Source: a virus. Taken from it: 20,384 nucleotides of DNA. The stretch spans positions 1 to 20,384 of IMG/VR virus record IMGVR_UViG_3300006802_000784. One strand, written 5' to 3'. Below are positions 649-14,242 of the stretch, piece by piece. The translations under genes and the position numbers were made by a program. The first letter of the stretch is position 1. Each line of letters opens with the position of its first letter. The notes below the pieces were generated by a model that was not told where the DNA came from, made no database searches, and worked only from the letters and a program-made list of their open reading frames with translations.

Positions 649-692
649 CACCGACATTTTAGCTTGACATTAAGGTTAATTTCTCGTATCCT
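649..692 (+). promoter_or_regulatory. Promoter P1 with CACCGACATT box, upstream of scaffold/capsid genes
   Basis: CACCGACATT (649-658) is followed by 5 nt and a perfect -35 hexamer TTGACA (664-669). A 17-bp AT-rich spacer leads to TATCCT (687-692), a 4/6 match to the -10 consensus. The same box and spacing recur at 6168 and 6273, and nearly so at 14189. Bases 661-720 are about 40% GC, far below the flanking genes. I read this as a late promoter for the scaffold and capsid transcript; CACCGACATT may be a binding site for a phage or host regulator. Confidence 0.65.
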
Positions 693-904
693 TGTCGCCA
701 TATTCGGAATTGAAGCCAAATCGGGGACCGATTTCGCTCTTCCAATCTCCATCACATCCGGTTCCGGGGGAACCACCAATTATTCCCCCACTCGATTTCT
801 TCCGTGCGTCCGACACGCCGGAATGAGGAAATCCTCTGGGAGGGTCCCGGAGGTCACGACTTCGTGCGTGCTTTCTCCAGTCCCTCGGTGAGGAACTTCT
901 TCAA
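693..904 (+). promoter_or_regulatory. Structured 5' leader of the scaffold/capsid transcript
   Basis: This 212-bp stretch has no convincing gene. It holds three hairpins with perfect or near-perfect stems and 3-nt G-rich loops. At 718-734 a 7-bp stem has loop GGA. At 760-774 a 6-bp stem GGTTCC/GGAACC has loop GGG. At 833-853 a 9-bp stem with one G-U pair has loop GGG. The second hairpin has an alternative, GGGGGAA (766-772) with TTCCCCC (783-789). A Shine-Dalgarno sequence GAGGAA lies at about 891-896, before the ATG at 905. Likely roles are transcript stability or translational control; neither is shown. Confidence 0.45.
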
Positions 905-1687
905 ATGCCAATCATCAATTTCGACTCCATCGACGCAGTCCCGGAGGGACTCAAGGAGTTCGCCAAGCAGAACGACGAAACGGGCAAGTTCGCAGTCAAT
1001 GTGACCGCGACCGTCAAGCTCGACGAGTTCCGCGAAAAGAACATCGATCTTTCCAAGAAGCTGGAAGCGCAGGCTCCGATCCTCGCTCGCGTCAAGGAAA
1101 TCGCCGGTGACGACCTCGAAGCCTTCGCCAACGACCTGAACGGTCTGCGCGACATCTCGCAGCGCGTGAAGGACGGGGAACTCAAGACCGACGACCAGAT
1201 CGAGCAGGCTGTGCAGGACCGCATCAAGGTCATGCGCGACGGCTACGAAGACAATTCCCGCAGCCTCAAGCGCGAGCTTGACGCTGCGAATGCCAAGGCA
1301 GTCACCCTCGTGGAGCGGCTGAACCGGACGCGGATCGACAAGGAAGTCACCGCAGCCGTGATCGTCCCCGAGAGCGGTGTCCGCCCCGAAGCCCTGCCGG
1401 ACGTGCTGGAGCGTGCCTACCGCCTGTTCAAGGTCGAGGACGAAAAGCTCATCCCGAAGCGCGGCGAAGCAACGATTTTCGGCGCAAACGGCGCAGATGC
1501 GATGACCGTCACCGAGTGGCTGGTCAAGCTCCGCGACGAAGCGCCGCACTACTTCAAGGGCAACGGTGGCGGTGGCGCTGCCGGCGGCAAGGACGAGAAG
1601 ATCGGTGGTTTCACCGCTGCTCAGATCGCCGCGATGTCCCCCCTGCAACGCCTCGAACTGGCGAACAAGGCCAGCGGTAACCGCTGA
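905..1687 (+). CDS. Capsid scaffolding protein
   Basis: The 260-residue product is highly charged and predicted to be largely helical, with long Lys/Glu/Asp/Ala-rich stretches compatible with coiled coil (about residues 35-150). Its C-terminus has the pattern WLVKLRDEAPHYFKG followed by a Gly-rich linker and a short tail, a form I associate with scaffolding proteins encoded just before major capsid genes. Scaffolds direct assembly of the procapsid shell and then leave. Its place between portal and major capsid genes supports this. No serine protease motif is seen here or nearby, so the scaffold may exit without the usual HK97-type maturation protease. The start is supported by GAGGAA about 9 nt upstream of the ATG. 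Confidence 0.75.
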   Translation: MPIINFDSIDAVPEGLKEFAKQNDETGKFAVNVTATVKLDEFREKNIDLSKKLEAQAPILARVKEIAGDDLEAFANDLNGLRDISQRVKDGELKTDDQIEQAVQDRIKVMRDGYEDNSRSLKRELDAANAKAVTLVERLNRTRIDKEVTAAVIVPESGVRPEALPDVLERAYRLFKVEDEKLIPKRGEATIFGANGADAMTVTEWLVKLRDEAPHYFKGNGGGGAAGGKDEKIGGFTAAQIAAMSPLQRLELANKASGNR

Positions 1688-1704
1688 TCTCCACCACTTA
1701 GGTC

Positions 1705-1791
1705 GGTCGTCGGTTCACCAAGAGATACACCCCGGCTTTCGGCCGCCTGTCGGGTGTTAGTTCCACCACCACCTCTAGGCGGCCGACGACC
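1705..1791 (+). promoter_or_regulatory. Structured intergenic region before the major capsid gene
   Basis: The 133-bp gap between scaffold and capsid genes contains a perfect 9-bp inverted repeat, GGTCGTCGG (1705-1713) with CCGACGACC (1783-1791). Inside it are a 6-bp pair ACACCC/GGGTGT (about 1726-1756) and a short CGGC/GCCG hairpin. There is no T-tract, so it does not look like a terminator. The capsid Shine-Dalgarno AGGAG (1807-1811) lies just outside. It may be a processing or mRNA stabilising structure that raises capsid expression relative to scaffold. Confidence 0.4.
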
Positions 1792-1820
1792 ACCCCGAAC
1801 TCACTTAGGAGTTTTTCCAA

Positions 1821-2747
1821 ATGTTGACCCTTCACGAAGCATCGAAGCTGGTCGATGGGGACCTCAAGCGTCAGGCGATCATCGAAATGTTCGCCGGCTC
1901 GACGGACCTCATGGCCGCTCTCCCGCTGATGGACATTCCGGGCAATAGCTATAGCTATGCTCAGGAAGCCAAGCTGCCGTCCGTCGGCTTCCGTGGCTAC
2001 AACCAAGGCTACGACGCCTCGATCGGCGTGATCAACCCGCAGAGCGAAACCCTCCGCATCGCGGGCGGCGAACTCGACGTTGACACCGCGCTGGTCAAGA
2101 CCCACGGCATCGGCGTTCGCACGCGTCAGGAAGCCATGCAGGTCAAGGCCATGGGTGCCAAGATCACCTCGGCCTTCATCAACGGCGACGGCGGCGACGG
2201 CGTGTCGTTCGACGGTCTGCGCAAGCGCGTGACCGGCTACCAGCTTCTGGCGGCAAACGAAGACGCTCCGAACGCGAACGGCGCTCTGTCGCTGGCCACG
2301 CTGGACGAAGCGATCGACCGCGTCGATAACCCGACGCACATCATCATGTCCAAGCGTATGCGCAACCTGCTGTCGCAGGCGGCCAAGGACAAGGACGTTG
2401 GTGGCGACCTCCAGTGGTCGAAGGATGACTTCGGTCGTCGCATCGGCTTCTACAACGACCTGCCGATCCTCATCACCGAGGACGACGAAGCCGGTGAGAA
2501 GATCATCGACTTCAACGAAGCCGGTCCGGCCGGCGGCACCGCGAGCCAGTCGCTGTATGTCGTGAGCTTCGGCGACGGCAAGATCGTCGGCCTCCAGAAC
2601 GGCATCATGGATGTCCGTGACCTCGGCGAAATCGACGCGCAGCCGGTCTACCGCACCCGCGTCGAGTGGCTGGTCTCGATGGCCGTCATGCACGGCAAGG
2701 CCGTCAGCCGCGTCTGGGGCATCACCAACGCGGCGGTCACCCGCTAA
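1821..2747 (+). CDS. Major capsid protein (HK97 fold)
   Basis: The 308-residue protein has features of compact HK97-fold capsid proteins that work with a separate scaffold. The N-terminal MLTLHEASKLVDGDLK leads into an N-arm-like segment with a GNSYSYAQEAKLPSVGFRGYN pattern (about residues 41-61), then a GGELDVDTALV stretch and an A-domain-like second half ending in VRTRVEWLVSMAVMH-type sequence (roughly residues 270-295). There is no N-terminal delta domain of about 100 residues, consistent with the separate scaffold upstream. A strong AGGAG ribosome-binding site 9 nt before the ATG and a terminator-like hairpin after the stop match a highly expressed product. It forms the icosahedral shell. 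Confidence 0.88.
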   Translation: MLTLHEASKLVDGDLKRQAIIEMFAGSTDLMAALPLMDIPGNSYSYAQEAKLPSVGFRGYNQGYDASIGVINPQSETLRIAGGELDVDTALVKTHGIGVRTRQEAMQVKAMGAKITSAFINGDGGDGVSFDGLRKRVTGYQLLAANEDAPNANGALSLATLDEAIDRVDNPTHIIMSKRMRNLLSQAAKDKDVGGDLQWSKDDFGRRIGFYNDLPILITEDDEAGEKIIDFNEAGPAGGTASQSLYVVSFGDGKIVGLQNGIMDVRDLGEIDAQPVYRTRVEWLVSMAVMHGKAVSRVWGITNAAVTR

Positions 2748-2751
2748 GTTT

Positions 2752-2810
2752 GGTTGGTGGGGGTGGTCCTAAGGGTCACCCCTTCCCACCCTCCCCTCAC
2801 CAACCCTTTT
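2752..2810 (+). terminator. Hairpin and T-run after the major capsid gene
   Basis: GGTTGGTG (2752-2759) pairs perfectly with CACCAACC (2798-2805). The stem extends by a G-U and three G-C pairs (2760-2763 with 2794-2797) and is followed by TTTT at 2807-2810. The 30-nt loop can fold further (GGTGG with CCACC). This is probably a leaky terminator that lowers transcription of downstream genes relative to the capsid gene. The next gene has its own GGAG immediately after. Confidence 0.55.
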
Positions 2811-2823
2811 CGGAGTATCTTCC

Positions 2824-3264
2824 ATGTCGAAGATGAAGAGCAAGTTCAAGTATATGTATGATGCCGCGCCGGCATCGGAACTGATCGCGAAGGACGGCGT
2901 CGCCAAGACCGCATCGTTCGACGGCACCGCCAAGGTCCTCGACGTGCTGGAGGGCTACTGGACCTCGGGCGAACTGGCCGATGACGTTTTCGCCGTCGCC
3001 ATCAACGTCACCGCTGTCGATCTGACCGCTGACGAAACCTACGTCCTCGAACTCGAAGCCGGCCCGGTCGGTTTCGCCACCTCGGTCGTCGTGGGTCAGG
3101 TCACGATCGCGGGCACCGGCCAGTATGTGATCCTCGTGGACGCAGACACGGTCAAGGCCCAGAAGGCTGATGCCGCTGCGATCCGTCTGGCGGGCACCAT
3201 CGGTGGCACGACCCCGTCGATCACGCTGCACGCGTGGATCGCTGGCCGCATCGTCGGTCACTAA
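2824..3264 (+). CDS. Putative capsid decoration (cement) protein
   Basis: The 146-residue product has a basic N-terminus (MSKMKSKFKYMY) followed by alternating hydrophobic segments that look like a beta sandwich (VFAVAINVTAVDL, TYVLELEAGPVGF, TPSITLHAWIAGRIV). Size, beta-rich pattern and position directly after the major capsid gene resemble Bbp16-type capsid cement proteins, which bind the outside of the shell and stabilise it against internal DNA pressure. The family assignment is from memory of the pattern and could be wrong; a head fibre base is the main alternative. GGAG at about 2812-2815 supports the ATG at 2824. It is isolated between two terminator-like hairpins, so its dose may be set separately. 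Confidence 0.6.
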   Translation: MSKMKSKFKYMYDAAPASELIAKDGVAKTASFDGTAKVLDVLEGYWTSGELADDVFAVAINVTAVDLTADETYVLELEAGPVGFATSVVVGQVTIAGTGQYVILVDADTVKAQKADAAAIRLAGTIGGTTPSITLHAWIAGRIVGH

Positions 3265-3280
3265 GTCCTGATCTGAATGA

Positions 3281-3313
3281 GAGGCGGGAGGCTCGACACC
3301 TCCCGCCTTCTTT
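3281..3313 (+). terminator. Intrinsic terminator
   Basis: AGGCGGGAGG (3282-3291) pairs perfectly with CCTCCCGCCT (3299-3308) around a 7-nt loop. The right arm is followed by TCTTT, giving a strong GC stem and a T-rich tail. It lies just after the cement protein gene. Confidence 0.7.
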
Positions 3314-3343
3314 CCCGGCTGACGAAACAGGAGCTTTCGAAGC

Positions 3344-3787
3344 ATGAGCAACCCCAACGACCTCAAGGTCTACTCCCCGTCGGGAGAGATGTTTGAGATG
3401 AGCCGCGCCAACGCGCACGATCTGACCACCCACGCCGGCTGGTCGTTCAAGGCTCCCACCGAAATCAAGGCTCCGGCCGAAATCGCCGCCTGCACCGTTC
3501 CGCCGGTGGTCAAGGAAACCGCCGATGCCCCGAGCAACGCTGACAGCGCACGAAGCGTCGAAGCTTCCGACACCCCGGTCGTCGAAGCCGAAGCTGAAAC
3601 CAGCACCGAAGCCGTCGAAGAAGCCGCCGAAGAAAACGACGCGGTGACCGACGCAGATTTCGCCCACCTCGAAGACCGCGACGCTGTCGTCGCCTACCTC
3701 GCGGAACATTTCCCGGAATTCAAGCCGCATCACAAGTCCAGCCGCGACGGCCTCGTCGCCAAGCTGGTCGAACTGACCAACGGCTAA
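3344..3787 (+). CDS. Acidic structural protein with HeH/SAP-like C-terminal domain
   Basis: The 147-residue protein has three parts. Residues 1-36 form a small domain containing LKVYSPSGEMFEMSRANAHDL. Residues 37-102 are a low-complexity linker of Ala, Glu, Pro, Thr and Val with many acids. Residues 105-147 (FAHLEDRDAVVAYLAEHFPE through KSSRDGLVAKLVEL) look like a helix-extended loop-helix (HeH/SAP-type) domain, a fold that often binds nucleic acid. Proteins of this design are common between capsid and head-tail connector genes, but their job is not settled; a minor head or connector role is plausible. AGGAG at 3329-3333 fixes the ATG. It is closed by a strong terminator at 3854-3887. Confidence 0.7.
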   Translation: MSNPNDLKVYSPSGEMFEMSRANAHDLTTHAGWSFKAPTEIKAPAEIAACTVPPVVKETADAPSNADSARSVEASDTPVVEAEAETSTEAVEEAAEENDAVTDADFAHLEDRDAVVAYLAEHFPEFKPHHKSSRDGLVAKLVELTNG

Positions 3788-3853
3788 GCCATCAGTCGGA
3801 CCGGCCCCACTCGTAGAAGCGCCACCGACATCCATTACCGCTCAGGCGGCTTC

Positions 3854-3887
3854 GCGCTCGACAAGCCCCCGCTTGTCGAGCGCTTTT
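3854..3887 (+). terminator. Strong intrinsic terminator
   Basis: A perfect 13-bp stem, GCGCTCGACAAGC (3854-3866) with its complement at 3871-3883, closes a CCCC loop and is followed directly by TTTT. It separates the capsid block from the HNH gene. The rest of the 116-bp gap has an isolated CACCGACAT at 3823-3831 without a -35 hexamer at the expected distance. Confidence 0.85.
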
Positions 3888-3903
3888 CATTCCAGAGAAT
3901 TAC

Positions 3904-4350
3904 ATGGGCGCGAAACGGCGCAAAAGAGAGTCGGAAACAGTCCAAGGTATCTGCGTTTCCTGCGACGAGCGGCCTCAAAGAAAAAATCGACTGAACGCGG
4001 CAGGTGAGCAAACATATTCAGCCCTCTGCGGCGTATGCTCCCATAAGCGAAACCCGCAAAAGACCAAAAGCATTCGCCCACCAAATTATTGGTGGGCATG
4101 GGAAAAATACCGTTACACGTCCGTAAAAGGGGACTCATGCGTCAAATGCGGCTTCGTCGCAGAAGACCCTTGTCAATTAGATGTGGACCACATCGACGGT
4201 GATCACAGCAACGATGATCCCGCCAATCTCCAGACGCTCTGCGCCAATTGCCATCGTCTTAAAACGAAGCTGAATGGCGATGGAATTTATCGGTTCAACA
4301 ATTCCACGCCCATTTCCATAGAGGCTACACATCATGGACATCCTAGTTGA
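3904..4350 (+). CDS. HNH endonuclease with zinc-binding cysteine pairs
   Basis: The 148-residue protein carries an HNH core in its C-terminal half: CVKC (C79, C82), LDVDHIDGDHSND with the first catalytic His H96, N108 in PANL, and CANCH (C113, C116, H117). An extra pair of cysteine knuckles in the N-terminal half (C17/C20 and C42/C45) probably binds a second zinc ion and DNA. HNH enzymes nick or cut DNA. Base composition differs from its neighbours: bases 4081-4140 and 4261-4320 are 45% and 43% GC, against about 72% at 4501-4560. It sits in a gap after a strong terminator and overlaps the next gene by 17 bp. I favour a mobile free-standing homing endonuclease; a packaging-associated HNH is the alternative. 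Confidence 0.88.
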   Translation: MGAKRRKRESETVQGICVSCDERPQRKNRLNAAGEQTYSALCGVCSHKRNPQKTKSIRPPNYWWAWEKYRYTSVKGDSCVKCGFVAEDPCQLDVDHIDGDHSNDDPANLQTLCANCHRLKTKLNGDGIYRFNNSTPISIEATHHGHPS

Positions 4351-4843
4351 AGACGGCACCGGCCGCGTCACGGCGAATGCCTATGCGTCCGTCGAAGAGG
4401 TGGACGACATCCTCTCGGTCAACATCCACTCGCAGTGGAGCGTCATTGCTGACGAAACGACCAAAGAGAATCTGATCATGTGGGCCAGCCGCATCCTCGA
4501 CGAGCGCGTGCGTTGGTTCGGCAAGAAGACGCACGAGACCTCCGGCCTCGCGTGGCCCCGGTCGCACATCCGCGACAAGGAGAACATCTTGGTCGATGAC
4601 TCCGTCGTGCCGCGCGCCGTCAAGATCGCGACCGCGCTGCTCGCCGATCACCTGATCGCCGGCAACCCGGAAGTCGCGAACACCGGATCGAACCTGACCT
4701 CGTTGCAGGTTGACGTGATCGCGCTCAAGTTCGACGCCCGCCTCGCGCCTGAGAAATATCCGGCTGAAATCGGCTACGCCCTGCGTGGCCTTGGCTCCGT
4801 CTCCATGGGCCGTGGCGGTCCCAAGCGCATCGTGAAGCACTGA
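4334..4843 (+). CDS. Head-tail connector adaptor (DnaT-like/gp6-like)
   Basis: The 169-residue product opens with DILVEDGTGRVTANAYASVEEVDDIL and continues with a helical segment LIMWASRILDERVRWFG and GLAWPRSHIRD. This is the pattern of the adaptor family often annotated as DnaT-like, which forms a ring under the portal and starts the head-tail connector. Placement at the head of a run of four connector genes agrees. The start ATG lies inside the end of the HNH gene, so the HNH probably inserted just upstream and took over part of the 5' end or translation signal. The stop is 2 nt before the next ATG. Confidence 0.72.
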   Translation: MDILVEDGTGRVTANAYASVEEVDDILSVNIHSQWSVIADETTKENLIMWASRILDERVRWFGKKTHETSGLAWPRSHIRDKENILVDDSVVPRAVKIATALLADHLIAGNPEVANTGSNLTSLQVDVIALKFDARLAPEKYPAEIGYALRGLGSVSMGRGGPKRIVKH

Positions 4844-4845
4844 TC

Positions 4846-5232
4846 ATGGCCGGCTACAACGATCTCATCAAACAGCAGGTCTCGAACGCGTTCAAGAACA
4901 TCCTTGCGCCCAACGGCCTGTCCGAGGAAATCACGGTCAAGTATTTCGTCAGCGAAGGCGCACACAACGTCGAGGACGACACGACCGAGACGATCTACAA
5001 CGAGGTGAAAGACGTTGTGGTCATCGTCGCCAAGCCGGGCTTCGACGACGTGAAGAATCACGGCGTCGTCTTCTCCGACGCCAAGCTCATCATCCCCGGC
5101 CCCTTCATCCCATCCGAGCCGCAGGTCGATACCGACAAGGTCATCCGAGCAAACGGCGAGGAGTGGGACATCCGCAAGGTCGTCGGCGTGCCCGGCGGCG
5201 GCGTCTGGACCGTCTTCATCTATCGGACCTGA
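4846..5232 (+). CDS. Putative head closure (stopper) protein
   Basis: The 128-residue protein has a short N-terminal helix (NDLIKQQVSNAFKNIL) followed by beta-rich sequence, including VVVIVAKPGFDDV, DAKLIIPGPFIP, EEWDIRKVVGVPGGG and WTVFIYRT. Head closure or stopper proteins are small beta-barrel proteins encoded between the adaptor and the gp10-like protein, and this one fits in size, fold pattern and place. I do not recognise a specific sequence family, so the call is mainly positional. It lies 2 nt from the gene before and 3 nt from the gene after, so it is almost certainly co-translated with them. Confidence 0.55.
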   Translation: MAGYNDLIKQQVSNAFKNILAPNGLSEEITVKYFVSEGAHNVEDDTTETIYNEVKDVVVIVAKPGFDDVKNHGVVFSDAKLIIPGPFIPSEPQVDTDKVIRANGEEWDIRKVVGVPGGGVWTVFIYRT

Positions 5233-5235
5233 TCC

Positions 5236-5721
5236 ATGCCTCTCATCGGTAAAGACAAGGCGCGGGCGGCGGCCATGGCTTCGATCGACGCCTTGGAAGC
5301 CCGCTTCGCACAGAACATCGAAACCCTGTGCGAGGACATCGACAAGCACATCAAGGCGCTCACCCCTGTCAACACCGGTGAGGCTGTCCGCAACTATATC
5401 TGGACGACCGGGACACCGAACAGCACCGTCTACAAGGCGATCGCAAACGGCCCGACCGGTCCGACCAACAGTATGCGGCTGGGCAGCGAACCGCGCCGGC
5501 CGGCCAATGAAGCGGCGGCGGCAGAAAGCCTCAAGTCGCTCAACCTGAAAGCCAACCCCTTCGCTACGATCTACCTGTCCAACGTCGCACAGGACATCGT
5601 CGGATTGGAGCTTGGCATCCTGCCGGGACCGCCTTATCGTTCGCGATCCCCACAGGGTATGTTCGGCATCACCTCGCAACACTTCAACATTCTCGTCGCG
5701 GCGCAAGGAATTCTCAAATGA
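5236..5721 (+). CDS. Tail completion/neck protein (HK97 gp10-like)
   Basis: The 161-residue product has an N-terminal helix (MASIDALEARFAQNIETLCEDID) and then KALTPVNTGEAVRNYIWT. The TPVNTG motif following a helix is the signature of the HK97 gp10-like family of neck or tail-completion proteins, which act at the head-tail junction. The C-terminal part (residues about 110-161) is predicted alpha/beta with PPYRSRSPQGM. Order between the closure and tail terminator genes agrees. The stop overlaps the next start in an ATGA arrangement at 5718-5721, implying translational coupling. Confidence 0.72.
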   Translation: MPLIGKDKARAAAMASIDALEARFAQNIETLCEDIDKHIKALTPVNTGEAVRNYIWTTGTPNSTVYKAIANGPTGPTNSMRLGSEPRRPANEAAAAESLKSLNLKANPFATIYLSNVAQDIVGLELGILPGPPYRSRSPQGMFGITSQHFNILVAAQGILK

Positions 5722-6158: not shown

Positions 6159-6167
6159 TTTGCCATC

Positions 6168-6211
6168 CACCGACATTCTCCCTTGACATATTAACCATTT
6201 TCAGTTACCAT
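6168..6211 (+). promoter_or_regulatory. Promoter P2 with CACCGACATT box, upstream of tail tube gene
   Basis: CACCGACATT (6168-6177), 5 nt, a perfect TTGACA (6183-6188), a 17-bp spacer and TACCAT (6206-6211, 4/6 match to the -10 consensus). Architecture is identical to the element at 649-692, and the AT-rich spacers also resemble each other (TTGACAT, then TTAA, then a TTT run). Bases 6181-6240 are 43% GC. It would drive the tail tube and following genes. Confidence 0.62.
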
Positions 6212-6235
6212 TGCGCTCTATTTCCGCTTCTTGTG

Positions 6236-6254
6236 CGGTGATCGGGGATCACTG
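6236..6254 (+). promoter_or_regulatory. GGG-triloop hairpin in the P2 leader
   Basis: CGGTGATC (6236-6243) pairs with GATCACTG (6247-6254), with one G-U pair, around a GGG loop. It begins 25 bp after the -10 hexamer of P2. In the P1 leader the first triloop hairpin begins 26 bp after its -10, and both share TCGGGGA at the loop. The rest of the 203-bp gap up to the tail tube start holds the second box copy at 6273 and a Shine-Dalgarno AAAGGG at 6346-6351. Confidence 0.5.
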
Positions 6255-6272
6255 TGTGCCAAGAGCGAATGT

Positions 6273-6294
6273 CACCGACATTTTAGCTTAACAC
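6273..6294 (+). promoter_or_regulatory. Second copy of the CACCGACATT/-35 box before the tail tube gene
   Basis: CACCGACATT (6273-6282), TTAGC, then TTAACA (6288-6293), one mismatch from a -35 hexamer. The first 17 bases are identical to the copy at 649. No good -10 lies 17 bp downstream, so it may be a regulator-binding site rather than a promoter. The box also forms a perfect dyad AATGTC-ACC-GACATT at 6268-6282. Confidence 0.45.
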
Positions 6295-6361
6295 AGCGAC
6301 AGTCCCGCCCCTCATGAATCGGGGCCGCGCTCCCCTGCATTCTCCAAAGGGTAAACACCAC

Positions 6362-8185
6362 ATGGCAAACAAGCTGCTGGCCGATTCCAATCGCGCCTCG
6401 CTCCGCGAGATCATCGAAGACAACAACTTCTGGGGCGAAACGCCGCAGGTCGGCCGCACGCGCGCTCGTCGTTTCACCTCTTCGTCGATCACCGCGACCA
6501 AGGAAACCGCAACCTCGGACGAACTGCGCGACGACCGCATGGTCTCCTCGGTCATCGAGACCGCTGCGACCTCGGGCGGCGACATCGCATGGGAATTCGC
6601 GGCCGGCACCCCGGACCTTGACTTCCAGCGCGCCTTGATGGGCGCTTGGTCGCGTCCGATGGAGTGGGACGTGTTCCGTGGCAAGACGGTAGCGATCACG
6701 GCCAACAACACCATCACGATCTCGGGCGGCGACTATACGGCCTATTTCACGGTCGGCCGCCGCGTCAAGACGAGCGGCTTCTTGGCTCGCTCGAACAACG
6801 ACTATCTCCAGATCGCCTCGGTGGACTTCACCGACGGCAAGACCAACGTCGTTGTCAGCGGCACGTCGCTGGTCGCAGAAGCCGGATCGGCTGTCACCAC
6901 GCTGGCTGATGCCAACGACGTGATCATCCTGAACAGCACCGCGATCCGCTTCGGCACCTTCTCGGACACGATCGACTCCAACGGCACCAACGCGTTCGCC
7001 GCTGCGATCGCCGCCGGGCAGCTTGTCTCGGGCCAGCGCATCTTCGTCGAAGGCGTCGGCTACGAAGCGGGCACCATCACGGTCGCGGCTGCTGCCGACA
7101 ACGAGCAGGTCACGATCTCGGACGGCAGCAACACCTTCACCTTCGAAGCACAGTCCGACAGCGACTACGCCACGGCGAGCGCCGTTGTGTTCGCGCTGGG
7201 CGCGGATGACAGCGAGACCGCTGCCAATCTCGCCGCCGCGATCAACGCCCTCCGCAACGCCGGTGAACTGAACATCGTCGCCTCGGCCGCAGCCGCTGTG
7301 ATCACCCTGACCAACCTGAACAAGGTCGGCGGCACGATCACCGAAGTGGACGCAACGCTGGCGGTCGTGAACTTCGCCGACGGCAACGCAGACTTGGGCG
7401 GCTTCTACACGATCCTCGCGATCACCAACGACGCGATCACCGTGGACCGCGAAGTCCCGCTGCTCGCAGCCGGCAAGCGCGTCACGATCAAGGGTTCGAT
7501 GCTTCGCAACCCGAGCAACAACGCCGCCATCACGCCGCAGTCGGCTTCGGTCGAAACCGGCTTCCATGACGTTGGTCAGTTCTTCACCGTTGACGGTCTG
7601 CGCACCGGCAGCGTCGGACTGGAAGTGACCTCGGGTTCGATCGTCACCGGCTCCACCACGCTGCAAGGTCGCGAGACCAAGCGCGCGAACACGGAGAAGC
7701 TGACGGGCGTCAACTACACGCCGCTGGAAGCGCCGGCCACGGAAGTCGTCTCGGCGACCGCCAACGTCGGTATGCTGAGCGTCGATGGCGTTGAGCAGGC
7801 GACGGCGATCCGCTCGATCACCTTCTCGATCGACGGCAACCTCCGCAACCAGACCGCCGTGGGTTCCAAGTTCCCGGTGGGCATCGCGGCAGGTCGTCTG
7901 AACCTGACGGGCACGATCGAAGCCTACTTCGCCGACGGCACGCTGTATGACAAGTTCCTCAGCCACGAGACTGTCAGCCTCGCCTTCCCGATCATCGATA
8001 TTGATCACAACACCTATTACTTCACCATCCCGGCGTTCAAGGTCTCCTCGGACCCGATCGCTCCGGCCGGTATCGATCAGGATGTCATGGAGACGATGGA
8101 GTTCACCGCGTTCCGCGACGCGGCGACGAAGTGCATGATCCAGATCGATCGCTTCTCCAGCACCTCCCCGATCACCGCGCTGTAA
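6362..8185 (+). CDS. Major tail tube protein with inserted domain(s)
   Basis: Start taken at 6362 (MANKLLADSNRASLREI) because AAAGGG lies 10 nt upstream; an in-frame ATG at 6314 would add 16 unlikely residues. The 607-residue protein starts with a tube-protein pattern (NFWGETPQ, ARRFTSSSITATKETATSDELRDDRMV) and ends with a second half typical of phage tail tube proteins (KLTGVNYTPLEAPATEV, FSIDGNLRNQTAVGSKFPVGIAAGR, then a YFADGTLYDKFL segment). Tube proteins stack as hexameric rings to make the tail. It is longer than usual. Residues about 238-338 (TISDGSNTFTFEAQS, SETAANLAAAINAL, AVITLTNLNKVGG) form a separable beta domain of a kind seen repeatedly in phage structural proteins, probably exposed on the tail surface. 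It is followed by the chaperone genes, the normal order. Confidence 0.85.
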   Translation: MANKLLADSNRASLREIIEDNNFWGETPQVGRTRARRFTSSSITATKETATSDELRDDRMVSSVIETAATSGGDIAWEFAAGTPDLDFQRALMGAWSRPMEWDVFRGKTVAITANNTITISGGDYTAYFTVGRRVKTSGFLARSNNDYLQIASVDFTDGKTNVVVSGTSLVAEAGSAVTTLADANDVIILNSTAIRFGTFSDTIDSNGTNAFAAAIAAGQLVSGQRIFVEGVGYEAGTITVAAAADNEQVTISDGSNTFTFEAQSDSDYATASAVVFALGADDSETAANLAAAINALRNAGELNIVASAAAAVITLTNLNKVGGTITEVDATLAVVNFADGNADLGGFYTILAITNDAITVDREVPLLAAGKRVTIKGSMLRNPSNNAAITPQSASVETGFHDVGQFFTVDGLRTGSVGLEVTSGSIVTGSTTLQGRETKRANTEKLTGVNYTPLEAPATEVVSATANVGMLSVDGVEQATAIRSITFSIDGNLRNQTAVGSKFPVGIAAGRLNLTGTIEAYFADGTLYDKFLSHETVSLAFPIIDIDHNTYYFTIPAFKVSSDPIAPAGIDQDVMETMEFTAFRDAATKCMIQIDRFSSTSPITAL

Positions 8186-8818: not shown

Positions 8819-9243
8819 TCGCCTACCTGAACTGGTCCTCCCGCACCACTTCGAAAAATTCGGAGTGGCTGCGGAAGGTTCAGGAGGAAAAAGGGATCAG
8901 GGTCAAGACCCTTGAGGACGAACCAGTGCTTTCGCCGCACCTCTTTTGGGTGTGGAAAGCCTTCACCGATCTAAACGCCCGCCGCCCCGTGGCCGGCATG
9001 GGAGGCTACCTCCCCTTCTCCTATATCGAAATCGAAGCCTACTGCCGACTGAAAGGCATCACCACGCTCAACGAGCGGGAACGGCTCCTTCGACTCCTCG
9101 ACGCGCTCGATGCCGCTTGGATGAAGGCTTACGTCGAGAAATCGGAACGGGAAAACAAAACCACCCCAGCCCCTCCTCCTCCGTCCCACTCCCCGCCTCG
9201 CGGTGGCGGACGGCGATCCCCTCCAAGAAAACAGGTGAGCTAA
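8414..9243 (+). CDS. Tail assembly chaperone, frameshifted long form (gpGT-like)
   Basis: A -1 frameshift at 8809-8815 joins the 134-residue short form to the overlapping frame, which is open without stops from there to TAA at 9241-9243. The extension is 142 residues, giving about 276 in total. It begins LIAYLNWSSRTTSKNSEWL, continues through HLFWVWKAFTDLNARRP, YIEIEAYCRLKGI and a helical ERERLLRLLDALDAAWMKAY, and ends in a Pro/Arg-rich tail. Size, position and mechanism match lambda gpGT, in which the T part contacts the tube protein while the G part holds the tape measure. A GTG at 8926 exists in this frame but lacks a clear ribosome-binding site, so independent initiation is less likely. 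Confidence 0.82.
8809..8815 (+). other. Programmed -1 frameshift site GGGAAAC
   Basis: The heptamer reads G-GGA-AAC in the short-form frame, an exact X-XXY-YYZ slippery site, followed at once by the TGA stop of that frame. Slippage by -1 gives GGG-AAA-CTG and enters the long-form frame. A hairpin at 8841-8874 (CCGCA/TGCGG, CCACT/AGTGG and CGAA/TTCG segments) lies 25 nt downstream, further than most stimulatory structures. Confidence 0.85.
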
Positions 9244-9246
9244 CCC

Positions 9247-12200
9247 ATGGACACCCATGGCATGAAGTTTGTAGTTGACACCACCGGGGTCGCGAAAGGT
9301 TTTCGCGACTACCGGGCGGCTGTCGATGGCATTTTCAAGTCCCTGAGTCAGTTCGAAGCTCACGTCGATAAGACGATGAAGGGCGTCGCCAAGGCGTCCT
9401 CCAACCCCCAAGCCCTGAACGCTTTCAAGAAGTCGGTTCAGGCATTCTCCAAGATCGACATCGACACGGGCGCAGCTAAGAAGCTGTCCGCCTTGTCGTC
9501 GGCTATGGTCGGCTTCAAGGCCCCGAGCCAAGCGCAAAGCGCCAACGCGAAGAAGTTCTTCTCGACCCTGAGCGGCCTACCCGACCTGTCGGCGGCCTAT
9601 CGCTCGGTCAAGTCGTTGAAGGGCCTGACCGAAGCCATGAACGGGTTCAAGGCCCCGTCGCAAACCCAAGCCAAAAATCTCGCTGCGTTCGGTGCTGCCG
9701 GCCTCAAGGCTGCGCCGGGCCTGAACGCGCTTGCCGGAATCAAGAATCTCTCGTCGGCCGCTGCTGGGATCAACACCATATCGGGCGCGATGAAGGGCCT
9801 GCGTGCGCCGTCGGCGAACCAGATCACGAACCTCAACGCGTTGGCGATGGCCATGCGTCAGTTCCGATTCAACAACCTCAGCGGATCGGGCAACTTCTAC
9901 GCGACCCTCGGCGCGATCGGTTCGTTCCGTGCTCCCACTCAGGCTCAAATCCGTAACCTGCAATCCTTCGTTGCGGCAGTCGCTTCCATGCGTGTGCCGC
10001 CGAACGCGACGCAGGTTGCCACCGCGCTTCACGCCATCGCAAACGCCGCAGCCAACGCCGGGAAGTCCCTTGGCGGACTCCGCTCGGGCCTCGGTGGTCT
10101 GGGCGGATCACTCGGCCGTGTAGGCTCGCAGGCGCAAGGCGCGTCGCTCCAGATGATGGGGCTGCAAAACGCATTCTCGGCTACCTTCCAAGTTGGCTCC
10201 TTGCTGCGATCGCTGCTGGGATCGCTGACGATCGCCGAAGTCGGACGTAACTTCTTCGAGGCCGCGAACGCGGCAATCCAGTTCAAGGCGCAGATGAGCG
10301 TCATGAACAAGGAAACCGCCTTCGCGAACACGCAGCTTAGCTACATCAACCAGACCGCCAACAAGTTCGGTATGGACGCGCTGGCTGCTGCCCAAGGCTT
10401 CGGTAAGGTCGCGATCGCCGCGAACAAGACCGGCATGACGGTCTCGCAGACGCAGCACATCTTCGAAGGCTTCTCGACCTCCATGGCTGTTCTCGGTGTT
10501 ACGACCGCAGGGCAGAATGACGTGTGGCTGGCGCTGCAACAGGTCATGAACAAGGGCTATCTGTCGGCCGAAGAACTCAACCAGCAGCTTAACGAAAAGC
10601 TGCCGGGCGCGATGGCCTATGCCGCCGAATACGCCAAGTCGCTGGGGATGACGCTGGAAGACGGCCTCAAGAAAAAGGCGCTCGACGCACAGGGCGTCCT
10701 CAAGCACGTCGCTGACCGCATGAAGCAGGACTTCGGTCCGGCCATGGCACAGGCGATGGATCGCCCTTCGTTCCAGATGACTGTTCTCAAGAACAAGGTC
10801 AACGAGTTCTATCAGGCAGTCGGCGAACGCGGTGGTAACGAAGCCTTCGCGAACCTGCTGCGTAGCATCACCGACCGGATGGACCCGGCGGCGATCGACC
10901 GCTACGCCACCGCGATCGGCGAGGGCTTGAAGAAGGCTGTCGATAGCCTGTCCAACGCGTTCAACTGGCTTTTCGAGAATTGGGATTCGATCAAGGGACC
11001 GCTGTCCACCACGCTCAATCTGATGGGTAAGTGGATGATCATGTCGGCCACCCTCCAGATCGGTCGCTTCATGGTCACGCCGCTGCTCCAGCTTGTCGGC
11101 GCGCTCGGCGCTGCCCGCACGGCCGGTGCCAGCTTCTCGGCGATGCTGGCCGGCCAGAAGTTCAACCTGATCGCCTCGTCGCAGGCGATGCAGGGATTGA
11201 GCGGCTATGCTCGCGTCGCTGCGACTTCGATGCTGGCGTTCCGCAACAGTGTCGCCACCTCCATCGCCGTGTCACGCGCTGCTGGCCTCAGCTTCGCCGC
11301 GACGGCAGCATCGCTGATGACGCTGAACAACGCTGGTCTTGCTGCTGCTGCTGGTCTGCGTGGGCTGGTCAACCTGCTGGGCGGTCCGGTGATCCTGACG
11401 ATGGCTGCTGTCGCGGCGTCGGGCTATATGCTCTGGGACCAGTGGAACGAGGGCACCAAGGCGATCACGGGGACCGAAGAGGCATCGAAGAAGATCAAGG
11501 ATCGCCTCAATGAGGTGACCACGTCACTGTATCTCAACAACGCGGCGGCGATCGAAGCACGGAACAAGCAGTCCGGCCTTGGTGGCGTCATGGGTCTCGT
11601 GACGACGGCGATGGAAATCTATCGCCAGAAGATGGACGAAGTCACCGGCGGCCTGTGGTCGCAGGCTGATGCTGTGCGCAACCTCGCGATCGAGAAGGCG
11701 AAGCTGGCAGTCACCGAGGCTCGCGCCAACCTTACCGCGTCGCAGATGGAAACGCCGGACGAGTTGTTCGCACAGGGGCGGAACCTCCGCAAGAACGGTC
11801 GTGGTTGGTTCCAGAAGGGCGTCCTCGGCACCTATTCCACCCTGCGTGGTTATGGCGAGCAGTTCTCGTCGTGGAGCGGCATCGATCCGAGCGTCGAAGA
11901 CAAGCGCTCGGCTGTCGCAACCAACCGCAACACCCTTGCACAAGCCGAAGCCACCCTCGCACAGGCGCAGGGCACCACGACCATGGACATCGTCGATGGT
12001 ATGAAGCGAGACCGCGAGCGCTGGGCGGCTGGTGTCACCAAGCCAGACCGTGTCACGCCGACCGAAAAGGGTGACGGCGCAGGTAAGGCCGCGCGCGAAG
12101 CCAAGGCACTGTCCACGGCTGTCGATGGTCTGATGCGTAAGCTGTCGGAGTCCAACGACCTGTGGAATCTGTCGCAGGACTATGTCGCGGACCTGACCTC

Positions 12201-14184
12201 CGAAGCTCGCACGCTTCTCAACGATGGCTCGTTCAAGCAGTGGTCGCAGAACCTCCAGACCGACTTCAAGGCGGGGAAGGTCAGCGCTGACAGCCTGATC
12301 AAGTCGCTGGAGCAGCCGGGCGCGATCTCGCAAAAGACGCTGACGGAACTCAAGAACCGTTACGGCACGGATGTCCAAGGCATCATCGACATGTTGCGCG
12401 CTCAGCAGGCGGATTACGAGGACGCCGTAAAGGACGCGACGATCAAGCAGATCGACCGCCAGTTGGTTTACCTCGACCGGGCGATGAACCGTCTGGCTGA
12501 CAACAGCCCGGCGATCAAGCTGAACATCGACTTCGCTGCGGACATGCAGGCAGGGGCCAAGGGCCTTATGTCGAAGGACCAGTTCGTCGGCTTCACCGAC
12601 ACGCTGCGTGGTCTGCGTGCAGGCACCGTCAGCGCCGAAGCCGCGACAGCGGAGTTCAACACGCGCCTGCTCGCCAGCGCCGACATCACCAAGCTCACCA
12701 AGGAACAGACGGACGCACTGACCGCCGCCACCAACCGTAATCTGGCGGCCCTCAACTACCAGAAGGCTCAAGCGGCCGAGAACGCCGCCTTTGGCGCGAC
12801 GCGTCTTCGCCAGATGCGTGAAGAAAATGCGGTGCTGATGCTCAACGCGAGCCAGCAGAGCATCTATTCGGACGTGCTGGAGGAAGTCCGCACGCGTCTG
12901 GAGAAGGGCGAATCCGTCACGCAGGCCCAGATTCAGGGCTATGTCCGTCAGGCCGAAGCCCTGTCGAGCCTCAACGACCAGTTGAAGCGCAACAAGGAGT
13001 TCTTCGAGAACAACGGCATCCGCAGCTACCTCAACGGCCTCAAGTCGGTTGGCGAAGCTGCAAACGAGCTTGACAAGAATGTCCTCCAGTCGCTGGAAGA
13101 TCAGCTTTTCAATCTCGGAACGAAGGGTAAGTTCAGCTTCAAGGCGATCTTCGACACGATCCAGCAGGGCTTGATCCGTGCCTCGTCGCAGAAGATCACC
13201 GAAGGCATCACCAAGATGTTCACGAGCAAGGAGGACCGTGAGAACGGGACCGCCTCGCCGATGGGCAAGCTGTTCGAAATGATCGGCCTTGGTAAGTATG
13301 AGCCGAAGCAGGCGGCCCCGCTGGGTTCGTCCGCCGCTTCGGCCATGTGGGTCCAGCTTGTCAACGGGATCAGTCCGACGACTGGCCAGCAGACGGCCAT
13401 CAACCCGACCACCGGCCTTCCGAACAATGCAGCCGTGTCGGGAACCGACCCGGCTTCGACGATCGTGAACGCCGTGGCGTCGATCACGGGCGGAAACGCC
13501 GCAGGCACCACCACCTCCACCACCGGATCGAGCACGCCTCCTCCGGCGGTGACCGAGGCTGCGACCCAGACGGCGCAAACCTTCGGCTCCTCGCTGACCA
13601 GCCTGATGCCGGCGATCGGCGCGTCCTTCTCGTCAGCGTTCAACGGCCCGATCGCTGGTATCTCCCAGATGTTCGCCCAGATGCTGGCGCAGCAGATGAC
13701 GGGCGGCACGGGCGGCGGTATGGGCAGCACCCTCGGCGCTGTTGGCGGTATGCTGGGCAGCACGCTCGGCAAGGCCATCGGCGGCAAGACCGGCGCGGCT
13801 ATCGGTGGCGCTCTGGGCACCATCGCCGGCACCGTCGGCGGCGCTTATCTGGGCGGCTTCAAGGAAGGTGGTATCGTCGGTTCGCCGGTGACCAAGAGCT
13901 TCGCGACCCCGTCGATGTTCGTCAATGCCCCTCACTACAAGGAAGGCACGGCGAACACCAGCGGCGGCATCCCGGCCGTCCTGCACGACAACGAGGCCGT
14001 CATTCCGCTGAGCCGTGGCCGCAAGGTCCCGGTTGATCTGGGTGGCGCAGCCAAGAAGGGCACGCAGGTCAATCAGGTGTTCAACATCCAGACGCCAGAC
14101 GCGAACTCGTTCCGCAAGAGCGACCAGCAGATTGCCTCGAACATGCACGCACAGGCCGCTCGCGCCTACCGCCGCAACAACTGA
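9247..14184 (+). CDS. Tape measure protein
   Basis: At 1645 residues this is the longest gene, placed after the chaperones as expected. Tape measure proteins set tail length, and at about 0.15 nm per residue this predicts a tail near 245 nm. AGGTGAG at 9233-9239 supports the ATG at 9247; an ATG at 9262 is a possible alternative. Residues about 80-260 carry repeats of an F-K/R-A-P-S/T-x-x-Q motif. Residues about 330-540 match the tape measure N-terminal domain pattern (FKAQMSVMNKETAF, TANKFGMDALAAAQGFGKVA, KGYLSAEELNQQLNEKLPGA). Hydrophobic segments occur near 596-626 and 696-732, then long helical coiled-coil sequence, a Gly/Ala-rich zipper at about 1484-1538, and a C-terminal GGIVGSP...VLHDNEAVIPLSRGRKVP block common in this family. 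Confidence 0.93.
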   Translation: MDTHGMKFVVDTTGVAKGFRDYRAAVDGIFKSLSQFEAHVDKTMKGVAKASSNPQALNAFKKSVQAFSKIDIDTGAAKKLSALSSAMVGFKAPSQAQSANAKKFFSTLSGLPDLSAAYRSVKSLKGLTEAMNGFKAPSQTQAKNLAAFGAAGLKAAPGLNALAGIKNLSSAAAGINTISGAMKGLRAPSANQITNLNALAMAMRQFRFNNLSGSGNFYATLGAIGSFRAPTQAQIRNLQSFVAAVASMRVPPNATQVATALHAIANAAANAGKSLGGLRSGLGGLGGSLGRVGSQAQGASLQMMGLQNAFSATFQVGSLLRSLLGSLTIAEVGRNFFEAANAAIQFKAQMSVMNKETAFANTQLSYINQTANKFGMDALAAAQGFGKVAIAANKTGMTVSQTQHIFEGFSTSMAVLGVTTAGQNDVWLALQQVMNKGYLSAEELNQQLNEKLPGAMAYAAEYAKSLGMTLEDGLKKKALDAQGVLKHVADRMKQDFGPAMAQAMDRPSFQMTVLKNKVNEFYQAVGERGGNEAFANLLRSITDRMDPAAIDRYATAIGEGLKKAVDSLSNAFNWLFENWDSIKGPLSTTLNLMGKWMIMSATLQIGRFMVTPLLQLVGALGAARTAGASFSAMLAGQKFNLIASSQAMQGLSGYARVAATSMLAFRNSVATSIAVSRAAGLSFAATAASLMTLNNAGLAAAAGLRGLVNLLGGPVILTMAAVAASGYMLWDQWNEGTKAITGTEEASKKIKDRLNEVTTSLYLNNAAAIEARNKQSGLGGVMGLVTTAMEIYRQKMDEVTGGLWSQADAVRNLAIEKAKLAVTEARANLTASQMETPDELFAQGRNLRKNGRGWFQKGVLGTYSTLRGYGEQFSSWSGIDPSVEDKRSAVATNRNTLAQAEATLAQAQGTTTMDIVDGMKRDRERWAAGVTKPDRVTPTEKGDGAGKAAREAKALSTAVDGLMRKLSESNDLWNLSQDYVADLTSEARTLLNDGSFKQWSQNLQTDFKAGKVSADSLIKSLEQPGAISQKTLTELKNRYGTDVQGIIDMLRAQQADYEDAVKDATIKQIDRQLVYLDRAMNRLADNSPAIKLNIDFAADMQAGAKGLMSKDQFVGFTDTLRGLRAGTVSAEAATAEFNTRLLASADITKLTKEQTDALTAATNRNLAALNYQKAQAAENAAFGATRLRQMREENAVLMLNASQQSIYSDVLEEVRTRLEKGESVTQAQIQGYVRQAEALSSLNDQLKRNKEFFENNGIRSYLNGLKSVGEAANELDKNVLQSLEDQLFNLGTKGKFSFKAIFDTIQQGLIRASSQKITEGITKMFTSKEDRENGTASPMGKLFEMIGLGKYEPKQAAPLGSSAASAMWVQLVNGISPTTGQQTAINPTTGLPNNAAVSGTDPASTIVNAVASITGGNAAGTTTSTTGSSTPPPAVTEAATQTAQTFGSSLTSLMPAIGASFSSAFNGPIAGISQMFAQMLAQQMTGGTGGGMGSTLGAVGGMLGSTLGKAIGGKTGAAIGGALGTIAGTVGGAYLGGFKEGGIVGSPVTKSFATPSMFVNAPHYKEGTANTSGGIPAVLHDNEAVIPLSRGRKVPVDLGGAAKKGTQVNQVFNIQTPDANSFRKSDQQIASNMHAQAARAYRRNN

Positions 14185-14242
14185 GCCTGACCGACATTCT
14201 AACTTGACATGCACCGACATTGTCAGTAGACGGTCAGGCTCA
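14182..14242 (+). promoter_or_regulatory. Box-containing element flanked by a 12-bp inverted repeat, before tail-tip genes
   Basis: ACCGACATT (14190-14198), 5 nt and a perfect TTGACA (14204-14209) repeat the architecture of P1 and P2. A second CACCGACATT follows at 14212-14221. The -10 region 17 bp after TTGACA (TAGACG) is poor. The element is enclosed by a perfect 12-bp inverted repeat, TGAGCCTGACCG (14182-14193) and CGGTCAGGCTCA (14231-14242), the left arm of which includes the tape measure stop codon. As RNA this is a 37-nt-loop stem without a T-tract. It could be a promoter with a flanking operator, or a processing or partial termination site. Confidence 0.5.

What the first reader, a model, noticed from the sequence alone, without database searches (positions are those of the whole stretch)
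649..14221. Recurrent CACCGACATT + 5 nt + TTGACAT box in front of each late module
Four copies with identical internal spacing lie at 649-670, 6168-6189, 6273-6294 and 14189-14210, each in a gap that opens a module: scaffold/capsid, tail tube (two copies) and tail tip. Partial copies occur at 14212-14221 and 3823-3831. TTGACA is a good -35, but the conserved CACCGACATT upstream is not part of a sigma-70 promoter, and only the first two copies have a reasonable -10 at 17 bp. This suggests a dedicated late-gene control site, bound by a phage activator or repressor or used by an altered RNA polymerase.
Basis: partly seen in the sequence, partly recalled or inferred. Interest (0 to 1): 0.78.

Follow-up and report, generated by a model that had tools for sequence, protein, structure and literature searches.

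The report
Phage-wide repressor sites at promoters
The repeated box is a control site that a large virus of marine bacteria places at dozens of its own promoters, probably so that one virus-made repressor can hold many of its genes off, and related viruses have their own versions of the box that change together with that repressor.

Summary
The repeat is real but is not a late-gene box. The window is a fragment of a 151-kb phiCbK-like siphophage (IMG/VR 3300025853_000035 contains it at 99.96% identity). That genome carries 34 copies of SACCG[AC]CATTYTnRCT against about 1 expected; 29 of 34 are intergenic, before replication, RNR, ligase and terminase-region genes as well as structural ones. 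The box overlaps sigma70-type promoters at two places: ending on the -35 TTGACA, or inside the 17-bp spacer ending on the -10; tandem copies 22-23 bp apart do both. Relatives use different boxes at the same genes: orthologues of G001's boxed genes carry their own genome's box in 11 of 16 (L02), 7 of 12 (Lacusarx), 8 of 13 (G016), and G001's box in none. Box divergence follows the recognition helix of a conserved CI-like repressor better than 32 other shared proteins after removing genome-wide divergence (partial r 0.66, Mantel p 0.0002). The repressor has a LexA/186-CI-like C-terminal fold without the catalytic Ser/Lys. Best reading: dispersed operators of a phage repressor, working like P1 C1 or mycobacteriophage L5 systems. 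A phiCbK-like Caulobacter phage has its own box and a distant homologue. Binding, and repression rather than activation, are inferred.

The parts
649..664 (+). box 1 (operator) upstream of and touching the -35 of the scaffold/capsid promoter
   Evidence: score 25.7 bits
664..669 (+). -35 TTGACA
   Evidence: sequence
687..692 (+). -10 TATCCT, 17 bp after the -35; start expected near 699
   Evidence: sequence; 17-bp spacing is general
905..1687 (+). scaffold gene, first gene of the transcript (about 206-nt leader)
   Evidence: orthologue annotated head scaffolding protein in XM05
6168..6183 (+). box 1 at the promoter of the gene annotated major tail tube (L02, RXM) or minor tail protein (XM05) in relatives
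6183..6188 (+). -35 TTGACA
   Evidence: sequence
6206..6211 (+). -10 TACCAT; the stretch ATTAACCATTTTCAGTTACCAT is largely kept in G003, XM05, L02 and Lacusarx while the box changes
6273..6288 (+). box in the presumed leader, without a recognisable promoter of its own
6362..8185 (+). downstream gene (start by my gene caller; the ORF listing gives 6314 as the longest start)
14189..14204 (+). box 1 at the DUF2460 tail-tip promoter
14204..14209 (+). -35 TTGACA
   Evidence: sequence
14212..14227 (+). box 2 inside the -35/-10 spacer of the same promoter, 23 bp after box 1
   Evidence: class B
14227..14232 (+). -10 TAGACG; next to an inverted repeat 14183-14193 / 14231-14241
   Evidence: sequence
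14260..14871 (+). DUF2460-type distal tail gene
   Evidence: L02 orthologue annotated DUF2460
20369..20384 (+). -35 TTGACT (20369-20374) and first bases of a further spacer box (start 20381), cut by the window end; complete at G001 115789 (-)
   Evidence: one search printed 20382 by plain subtraction; the two records differ by a one-base indel

Best explanation
The box is the operator of a genome-wide regulon. A phage-encoded XRE/CI-like repressor (G001 100383-101180, outside the window) binds the box, probably as a dimer, at about 34 places, mostly at host-sigma70-type promoters of replication and structural operons. Box 1 covers the -35 and the DNA just upstream; box 2 covers the spacer and the -10; tandem boxes 22-23 bp (two helical turns) apart cover the whole core promoter. 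Bound repressor blocks RNA polymerase. A separate promoter family (TTGACCGAATC), concentrated in the terminal early-type region, has few boxes near it and would stay free. The repressor's own promoter carries a degraded box in the window's group, so it may be self-limited. Each phage lineage has its own box and matching recognition helix, as in immunity systems. Shown: site distribution, promoter geometry, swap of box sequence at orthologous genes, covariation with the recognition helix, predicted repressor fold. Inferred: binding, repression, timing, immunity.
For: 34 sites in G001 and 37 in XM05 at >=14 bits, about 0.4 and 0.8 expected (5 Markov shuffles). Backwards-pattern control 0 in 15 of 15 records (records chosen because they hold the box). 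Intergenic 29/34, 30/33, 26/30, 27/27 in G001, XM05, G003, L02, where 15-20% of the genome is intergenic. 21 of 29 intergenic G001 sites point to a gene start within 270 nt, 4 of 29 in the reverse orientation. 'TA' of the -10 at exactly 17 bp in 74 of 127 TTGACA-type sites from 11 genomes, 1-13 of 127 at 11 other spacings. A second box at +/-22 or 23 bp is among the top six of 88 offsets in 12 of 12 genomes and first in 8. Swap in place: orthologues of G001 boxed genes have their own genome's box in 11/16 L02, 10/14 G017, 7/12 Lacusarx, 5/11 G018, 8/13 G016, 3/11 RXM, against 3/71, 5/62, 6/69, 3/84, 1/82, 3/46 for orthologues of unboxed genes; G001's box is there in 0, 1, 0, 0, 0, 0. Repressor is first of 33 shared families in correlation with box divergence; partial r: recognition helix 0.66 (p 0.0002), HTH 0.56 (p 0.0008), C-terminal domain 0.38 (p 0.0098), best other family 0.48. 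G016: core proteins 75% identical to XM05/G001, 68% to Lacusarx, but helix KSRATIVQYE and a GTTAGT-type box as in Lacusarx and G018. C-terminal fold matches LexA and 186 CI. Near-consensus -35 hexamers fit promoters that need no activator.
Against: No binding or expression data. Only 9 genomes entered the covariation test, they are not independent, core divergence alone correlates with box divergence (r 0.67), and a methyltransferase-like family reaches partial r 0.48. The matrices were started from seeds I chose after free motif discovery. In the window's group the box is not clearly palindromic (best complementarity 0.37-0.49 at varying centres), although a dimer is proposed. -10 hexamers are often weak: 29 of 127 match TATAAT in 4 or more positions. 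By my cut-offs sites fit neither promoter class in 9 of 34 (G001), 16 of 33 (XM05), 27 of 39 (Lacusarx), 19 of 30 (G016), 20 of 24 (RXM). Orientation is not clear in RXM (8 ahead, 9 reverse of 16) and weak in Lacusarx (19 and 11 of 34) and G016 (15 and 9 of 25), where sites are palindromic. RXM is the weakest case throughout. Box 1 lies where CI-type activators can also sit. L02 is described as lytic and phiCbK as virulent, and no related repressor was found in bacterial genomes or plasmids, so a lysogenic role is unproven.
Confidence: 0.7

Rival explanations
1. Activator site: the same CI-like protein, or another, binds box 1 next to the -35 and recruits RNA polymerase to switch on middle and late genes.
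For: Box 1 ends on the -35, a classical place for activators; the TTGACCGAATC promoter family is largely separate from the boxes; many -10 hexamers are weak.
Against: Box 2 lies in the spacer and on the -10, at some promoters as the only copy (XM05 39384, 49218, 53605), where a bound activator would be in the way; the -35 is near consensus.
Confidence: 0.13
2. The box is read by another phage protein present in all relatives (T5 A1-like protein, RapA-like helicase, DNA methyltransferase).
For: A1 and RapA homologues occur in all 9 genomes compared; the methyltransferase-like family is second in the partial correlation (0.48).
Against: The recognition helix of the repressor correlates best (0.66) and its C-terminal domain clearly less (0.38), as expected for a DNA-reading part.
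Confidence: 0.1
3. Promoter element of a phage sigma factor or modified polymerase dedicated to late genes.
For: Lacusarx gp182 has a sigma70 region 4.
Against: In the 12 sequences searched, gp182 matches elsewhere only over 39-69 aa outside region 4 (G016-G018 were not yet included); the box is not late-specific and has two positions relative to the promoter.
Confidence: 0.05
4. Binding site of a host regulator such as CtrA or LexA.
For: CtrA sites are known in this phage group (PMC9437464, passages seen); CtrA-like words cluster in early-type regions; the tail tube promoter has ATTAACCAT after the -35, like a CtrA half site (recalled).
Against: No TTAA-N7-TTAA, GTTAACCAT or GTTAA[GC][GC]TTAAC in the window; the box itself differs between two Erythrobacter phages (XM05 and L02), which a shared host factor would not explain.
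Confidence: 0.02

Closest known systems
Cluster A mycobacteriophage immunity (L5-type repressor, operators and stoperators)
   Same: 20-30 dispersed sites per genome, oriented with transcription; lineages have distinct site consensus and repressors (PMC6550527, passages seen)
   Different: Most stoperators are not promoter-associated and are asymmetric 13-mers bound by a monomer with two DNA-binding domains (PMC9283540, passages seen); here most G001 sites lie on promoters and the protein is HTH + S24-like fold
Phage P1 C1 repressor with dispersed operators
   Same: 22 operators dispersed over the phage genome (PMC8546580, passages seen)
   Different: 17-bp asymmetric operator of different sequence; relation of the C1 protein not tested here
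CI/LexA-type repressors, especially 186 CI
   Same: HTH_3 plus LexA/186-CI-like C-terminal fold
   Different: No Ser/Lys dyad, so no self-cleavage expected; sites spread over the genome instead of one switch. That 186 CI is itself not cleaved and forms multimers is recalled, not looked up
Repressor of Citromicrobium phage RXM
   Same: The RXM paper already names an integrase and a repressor and suggests lysogenic or pseudolysogenic potential (PMC8953757, passage seen); the RXM orthologue is annotated as a LexA-family regulator
   Different: The passages seen mention no operator sites; 'promoter' does not occur in that text
phiCbK TgrL (gp216)
   Same: Phage XRE regulator in the same phage superfamily (PMC10688885, abstract and passages seen)
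   Different: Described as an early protein acting on host genes; the passages seen report no box on the phage genome
CtrA sites of Alphaproteobacteria phages ('lytic deferment')
   Same: Repeated sites in the same phages, including Lacusarx (PMC9437464, passages seen)
   Different: Host regulator, TTAA-N7-TTAA, concentrated in the terminal repeats

Membership tests
CI/LexA-like (XRE + S24 fold) repressor | N-terminal HTH_3/Cro-C1 domain | tested here: met
   Pfam HTH_3 above cutoff in 4 of 4 repressors scanned: XM05, Lacusarx, L02, RXM
CI/LexA-like (XRE + S24 fold) repressor | S24/LexA-type C-terminal fold | tested here: met
   G001 model, pLDDT mostly above 80 in that part; 186 CI C-terminal domain Z 11.7, LexA Z 12.1; no Pfam S24 hit by sequence
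CI/LexA-like (XRE + S24 fold) repressor | catalytic Ser and Lys for self-cleavage | tested here: not met
   Alignment of 5 phages read by eye against LexA motifs that are recalled: Ser position is Ala (Glu in RXM), Lys position Val or Ile; not checked by structural superposition
Cluster A-type dispersed-site immunity | 20 or more dispersed sites, oriented with transcription | tested here: met
   24-39 sites in the 10 genomes of 100 kb or more, 22 in the 97-kb G004, 11 in the 39-kb G009; orientation 21 vs 4 of 29 in G001, but unclear in RXM, Lacusarx, G016
Cluster A-type dispersed-site immunity | most sites outside promoters, halting elongation | tested here: inconclusive
   promoter classes A or B hold 25 of 34 sites in G001, 17 of 33 in XM05, 12 of 39 in Lacusarx, 4 of 24 in RXM; the cut-offs are strict and elongation cannot be tested
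Cluster A-type dispersed-site immunity | lysogeny and superinfection immunity | not testable with these tools
   no bacterial-genome or plasmid relative found; needs experiment
P1 C1-type dispersed operators | homology to the C1 repressor or its operator | not tested
   compared only by layout
sigma70-type promoter | -35 TTGACA and -10 TAnnnT about 17 bp apart | tested here: met
   TA at 17 bp in 74 of 127 class A sites; 29 of 127 match TATAAT in 4 or more positions
dedicated late-gene promoter | present only before late genes | tested here: not met
   sites precede DNA polymerase, RNR, ligase and other non-structural genes

The most novel reading that the evidence does not exclude
The whole phiCbK-like superfamily, including phages held to be strictly virulent, carries a hidden immunity-type system: a non-cleavable CI-like repressor with 20-40 promoter operators that can shut down most genes outside the early region, giving deferment or pseudolysogeny and superinfection exclusion; box and recognition helix diversify together as immunity groups. 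The sensor that lifts repression is unknown and is not RecA-driven cleavage.
Probability: 0.35. Interest if true: 0.82.

Novelty: new variant of a known kind. Interest (0 to 1): 0.64.

Why it matters
It proposes a master switch for a family of large siphophages related to a long-used model (phiCbK), for which no such promoter code turned up in the searches made here. It gives a ready test: a phiCbK infection RNA-seq time course exists (PMC10688885, passages seen), and genes behind the Caulobacter-phage box can be compared with its temporal classes. It also offers a natural series of matched recognition helices and operators at orthologous genes, useful for reading the specificity code of XRE repressors, and it raises whether 'lytic' phages keep immunity systems.

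Tried and rejected
Late-gene-only box: rejected on the genome map. Sigma factor reader: Lacusarx gp182 not found full length in the other sequences. 'RNA polymerase alpha C-terminal' protein of L02: matches a phage 'histidyl tRNA synthetase' family, with no alpha-CTD hit in Pfam. Similarity to L5 stoperators by sequence: only the -35 part is shared (by eye; L5 letters recalled). Relatives of the repressor in bacterial genomes and plasmids: none (pattern-based scan). More repressor variants: searches gave only the Lacusarx record itself, two L02-type contigs (L093, L090) and re-finds; RXM gave none. The A1 scan gave 19 loci; I scanned 10 of them (L121, L123-L125, L129, L134-L136, L138, L139) plus L118 and L085 for known boxes; L138, L125 and L135 were then searched for the repressor (1 of 3, L138's record) and only L138 was followed further. 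Rfam on the window: no match at E<=1. Absence of the exact box words from print: one text search of the held PMC library (0 papers); (topic searches, 1 and 10 papers listed) showed no title describing this system.

Dropped rows and limits: G002 has group-1 boxes but no repressor hit; it also gave no A1 or RapA hit, so that region is probably missing from the contig. G009, a 39-kb piece, gave no repressor hit either. G002, G004, G007, G008, G009 and G019 were not used in the covariation test. The G018 row in alignment A3 came from a wrong locus and is ignored. Of 114 phage records matched at E<=10 only 12 were listed; among them Microcystis phage Mwe-JY26 (E 7e-9) was not followed. Free motif discovery on CcrBL10 gave uninformative first two rounds; its box appeared in the third.
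Full report
OBSERVATION. The box is real. One search finds five + strand matches to CACCGACATT-N5-TTGACAT within three mismatches (0.03 expected). Two are exact (649, 6168). The copy at 6273 carries TTAACAC, the copy at 14189 begins GACCGACATT, and 14212 is a second box 23 bp after 14189. The fragment at 3823 is not among the 34 sites of the genome scan. The -35 hexamers at 664, 6183 and 14204 have candidate -10 hexamers 17 bp on (TATCCT, TACCAT, TAGACG). A sixth box starts at 20381, cut by the window end.

WHERE IT COMES FROM. The nearest annotated phages are Erythrobacter phages XM05 and vB_EliS-L02, Sphingobium phage Lacusarx and, over 1% of the window, Citromicrobium phage RXM. An IMG/VR contig of 151,382 bases (G001) contains the whole window at 99.96% identity on its minus strand, so it serves as the genome of this phage.

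NOT A LATE BOX. A matrix from 76 distinct sites finds 34 sites in G001 and 37 in XM05 at >=14 bits (about 0.4 and 0.8 expected), but 1, 0 and 1 in Lacusarx, L02 and RXM. In 15 of 15 contigs tested, chosen because they hold the box, the backwards control pattern is absent. In G001 the sites precede orthologues of DNA polymerase, a dNMP phosphatase, the A1-like gene, RNR large subunit, DNA ligase and the first gene of the terminase-region operon, as well as scaffold, tail tube, tail tip and tail fibre genes (with names). 29 of 34 are intergenic, where 18% of the genome is intergenic. A second promoter family, TTGACCGAATC, occurs 26 times in G001: 20 in the leftward block at 132-151 kb (one box), 4 in the block at 0.1-8 kb (three boxes) and 2 in the block at 9-50 kb (four boxes). 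Two largely separate promoter classes thus exist. The name 'early' is inferred from position.

GEOMETRY. Sites fall into two placements. In class A the box ends on a -35; 'TA' of a -10 then lies exactly 17 bp after TTGACA in 74 of 127 sites from 11 genomes, against 1-13 of 127 at the 11 other spacings tried; only 29 of 127 match TATAAT in four or more positions. Its start is a median of 75 nt before the start codon (86 sites). In class B the box fills the spacer and its end is the -10; median 47 nt (31 sites). Tandem pairs do both: +/-22 or 23 bp is among the top six of 88 offsets in 12 of 12 genomes and is first in 8. Neither class by my cut-offs: 9 of 34 in G001, but 16 of 33 in XM05, 27 of 39 in Lacusarx and 20 of 24 in RXM. 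A site that may overlap either promoter hexamer is expected of an operator and not of a polymerase-recognised element.

THE BOX CHANGES, THE PLACE STAYS. Free motif discovery in Lacusarx, L02 and RXM gave other boxes, as did contigs G016, G017, G018. Per-genome refinement gave: window group CACCG[AC]CATTYTnRCT (34, 33, 30 sites in G001, XM05, G003); L02 and G017 AAsnGCAATTTTTGCT-like (27, 24); Lacusarx kGTTAkTTwAACT (39); G018 AGnGTTAGTTTCrCT (25); G016 sAsyGTTAGTnwnrCT (30); RXM GAGGTCAGTkwnACT (24, the weakest set, 16 of 24 intergenic). Of the 21 G001 genes with a box within 280 nt, those with an orthologue carry the relative's own box in 11 of 16 (L02), 10 of 14 (G017), 7 of 12 (Lacusarx), 5 of 11 (G018), 8 of 13 (G016) and 3 of 11 (RXM); orthologues of unboxed genes do in 3 of 71, 5 of 62, 6 of 69, 3 of 84, 1 of 82 and 3 of 46; the G001 box itself is there in 0, 1, 0, 0, 0 and 0. 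Upstream regions read side by side show -35 and -10 kept while the box is swapped, best at the tail fibre promoter; some orthologues have no box at all. In Lacusarx, G016, RXM and G018 the sites outside class A are palindromic about column 12 (complementarity 0.62, 0.56, 0.51, 0.48; 0.25 if random); in the window's group symmetry is weak (0.37-0.49, varying centre).

13 of 16 sequences encode one HTH protein; the exceptions are the window, G002 and G009, all incomplete. In XM05, Lacusarx, L02, RXM and G001 it lies beside RNR genes. It has an HTH_3 domain and matches the phage repressor family phrog_4 across both domains in XM05, L02 and RXM. The G001 model (mean pLDDT 74, unsure in the first 52 residues and the linker) matches P22 C2 and 434 Cro in its HTH and LexA and 186 CI in its C-terminal domain. 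By eye the Ser and Lys needed for self-cleavage are replaced in all five aligned phages (positions of the catalytic residues recalled). Among 33 families present in all 9 genomes compared, this protein correlates best with box divergence (Pearson 0.79, median of all 33 0.60). After regressing out mean divergence, the 11-residue recognition helix leads (partial r 0.66, Mantel p 0.0002), then HTH (0.56, p 0.0008); the C-terminal domain has 0.38 (p 0.0098) and the best other family 0.48. G016 is the telling case: core proteins 75% identical to XM05 and G001, 68% to Lacusarx, but helix KSRATIVQYE and box type of Lacusarx and G018. L02, 75-76% identical to the window group in core proteins, has an HTH only 37-42% identical and a different box. 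This is the pattern of immunity specificities, though nine related genomes are few.

MECHANISM. Near-consensus -35 hexamers with a site lying on the promoter argue for repression. The repressor's own promoter carries, by eye and unscored, a degraded box ending in ATTTTCGCTTGACA in six group-1 genomes and looser forms in L02 and Lacusarx, none clear in RXM; it overlaps a hairpin there, so the resemblance may partly be a terminator. In XM05, G003, G004 and G007, not G001, GAATCG letters as in the TTGACCGAATC family follow the -35, so the gene may be expressed early. No RecA-driven release is expected without the dyad; the releasing signal is unknown. CtrA-like words cluster outside the window in early-type regions, and lytic deferment by CtrA is published for these phages (PMC9437464), so the two layers may act together; that is speculation.

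REACH. The XM05 repressor finds only 5 of 50,697 phage records (four phages) at E<=1e-3, but the G001 one reaches CcrRogue gp106 (E 1e-4), which lies beside RNR and dUTPase genes with the lysis genes converging on it, and a Microcystis phage regulator (E 7e-9) not followed up. The phiCbK-like Caulobacter phage CcrBL10 (identified through) matches the repressor profile at E 9.8e-9 and has GTCGTGAATCTTGACA 20 times with at most one mismatch (1 in a single shuffle), 12 of 20 intergenic by my gene calls; at least two have a degenerate second copy 22 bp on, by eye. That this box is read by that homologue is a guess.

KNOWN OR NEW. Dispersed repressor operators are known from P1 (22 sites, PMC8546580) and cluster A mycobacteriophages (20-30, PMC6550527); the RXM repressor was noted before (PMC8953757); papers were seen as passages only. 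The layout on both promoter hexamers, the S24-like repressor without its dyad and the occurrence in phiCbK-like phages appear new; searches of the held library showed no report, and most subscription papers are not held there.

Noticed in passing
window 840-904: Conserved leader RNA directly before the scaffold gene: a CCUCUGGG/CCCGGAGG-type hairpin, a loop GGG that could pair with a downstream CCCUC, and a ribosome-binding GAGGA that could pair with the upstream UCCUC; aligned in 11 genomes, own included; no Rfam match; covariation not counted. Looks like a translational switch for the capsid operon.
   Followed up: partly
G001 (IMG/VR 3300025853_000035) 139,800-151,400 and 1-2,600, outside the window: A second promoter family, GTGCTTGACCGAATC, 26 copies of TTGACCGAATC, mostly in the terminal region; L02 and Lacusarx have TTGACGAATC-type words instead.
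   Followed up: partly
L142-L153 (CcrBL10): phiCbK-like Caulobacter phage with 20 copies of GTCGTGAATCTTGACA (up to one mismatch); it matches the repressor profile at E 9.8e-9, and the related CcrRogue encodes a distant homologue beside its RNR genes.
   Followed up: partly
G001 88,622-89,411: A 735-bp tandem duplication containing a small gene and two face-to-face boxes.
   Followed up: no
window 14183-14241: Inverted repeat GAGCCTGACCG/CGGTCAGGCTC enclosing both boxes of the tail-tip promoter; XM05 and G003 have a comparable repeat there with different letters.
   Followed up: no
G001 78,715-79,473: The methyltransferase-like gene (named by synteny with XM05) is the best non-repressor family in the partial correlation with box divergence (0.48); possibly chance, possibly a link between methylation and the box.
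   Followed up: no
L031 41542-42063: L02 protein annotated 'RNA polymerase alpha subunit C-terminal domain' instead matches a phage 'histidyl tRNA synthetase' family; the annotation is doubtful.
   Followed up: yes
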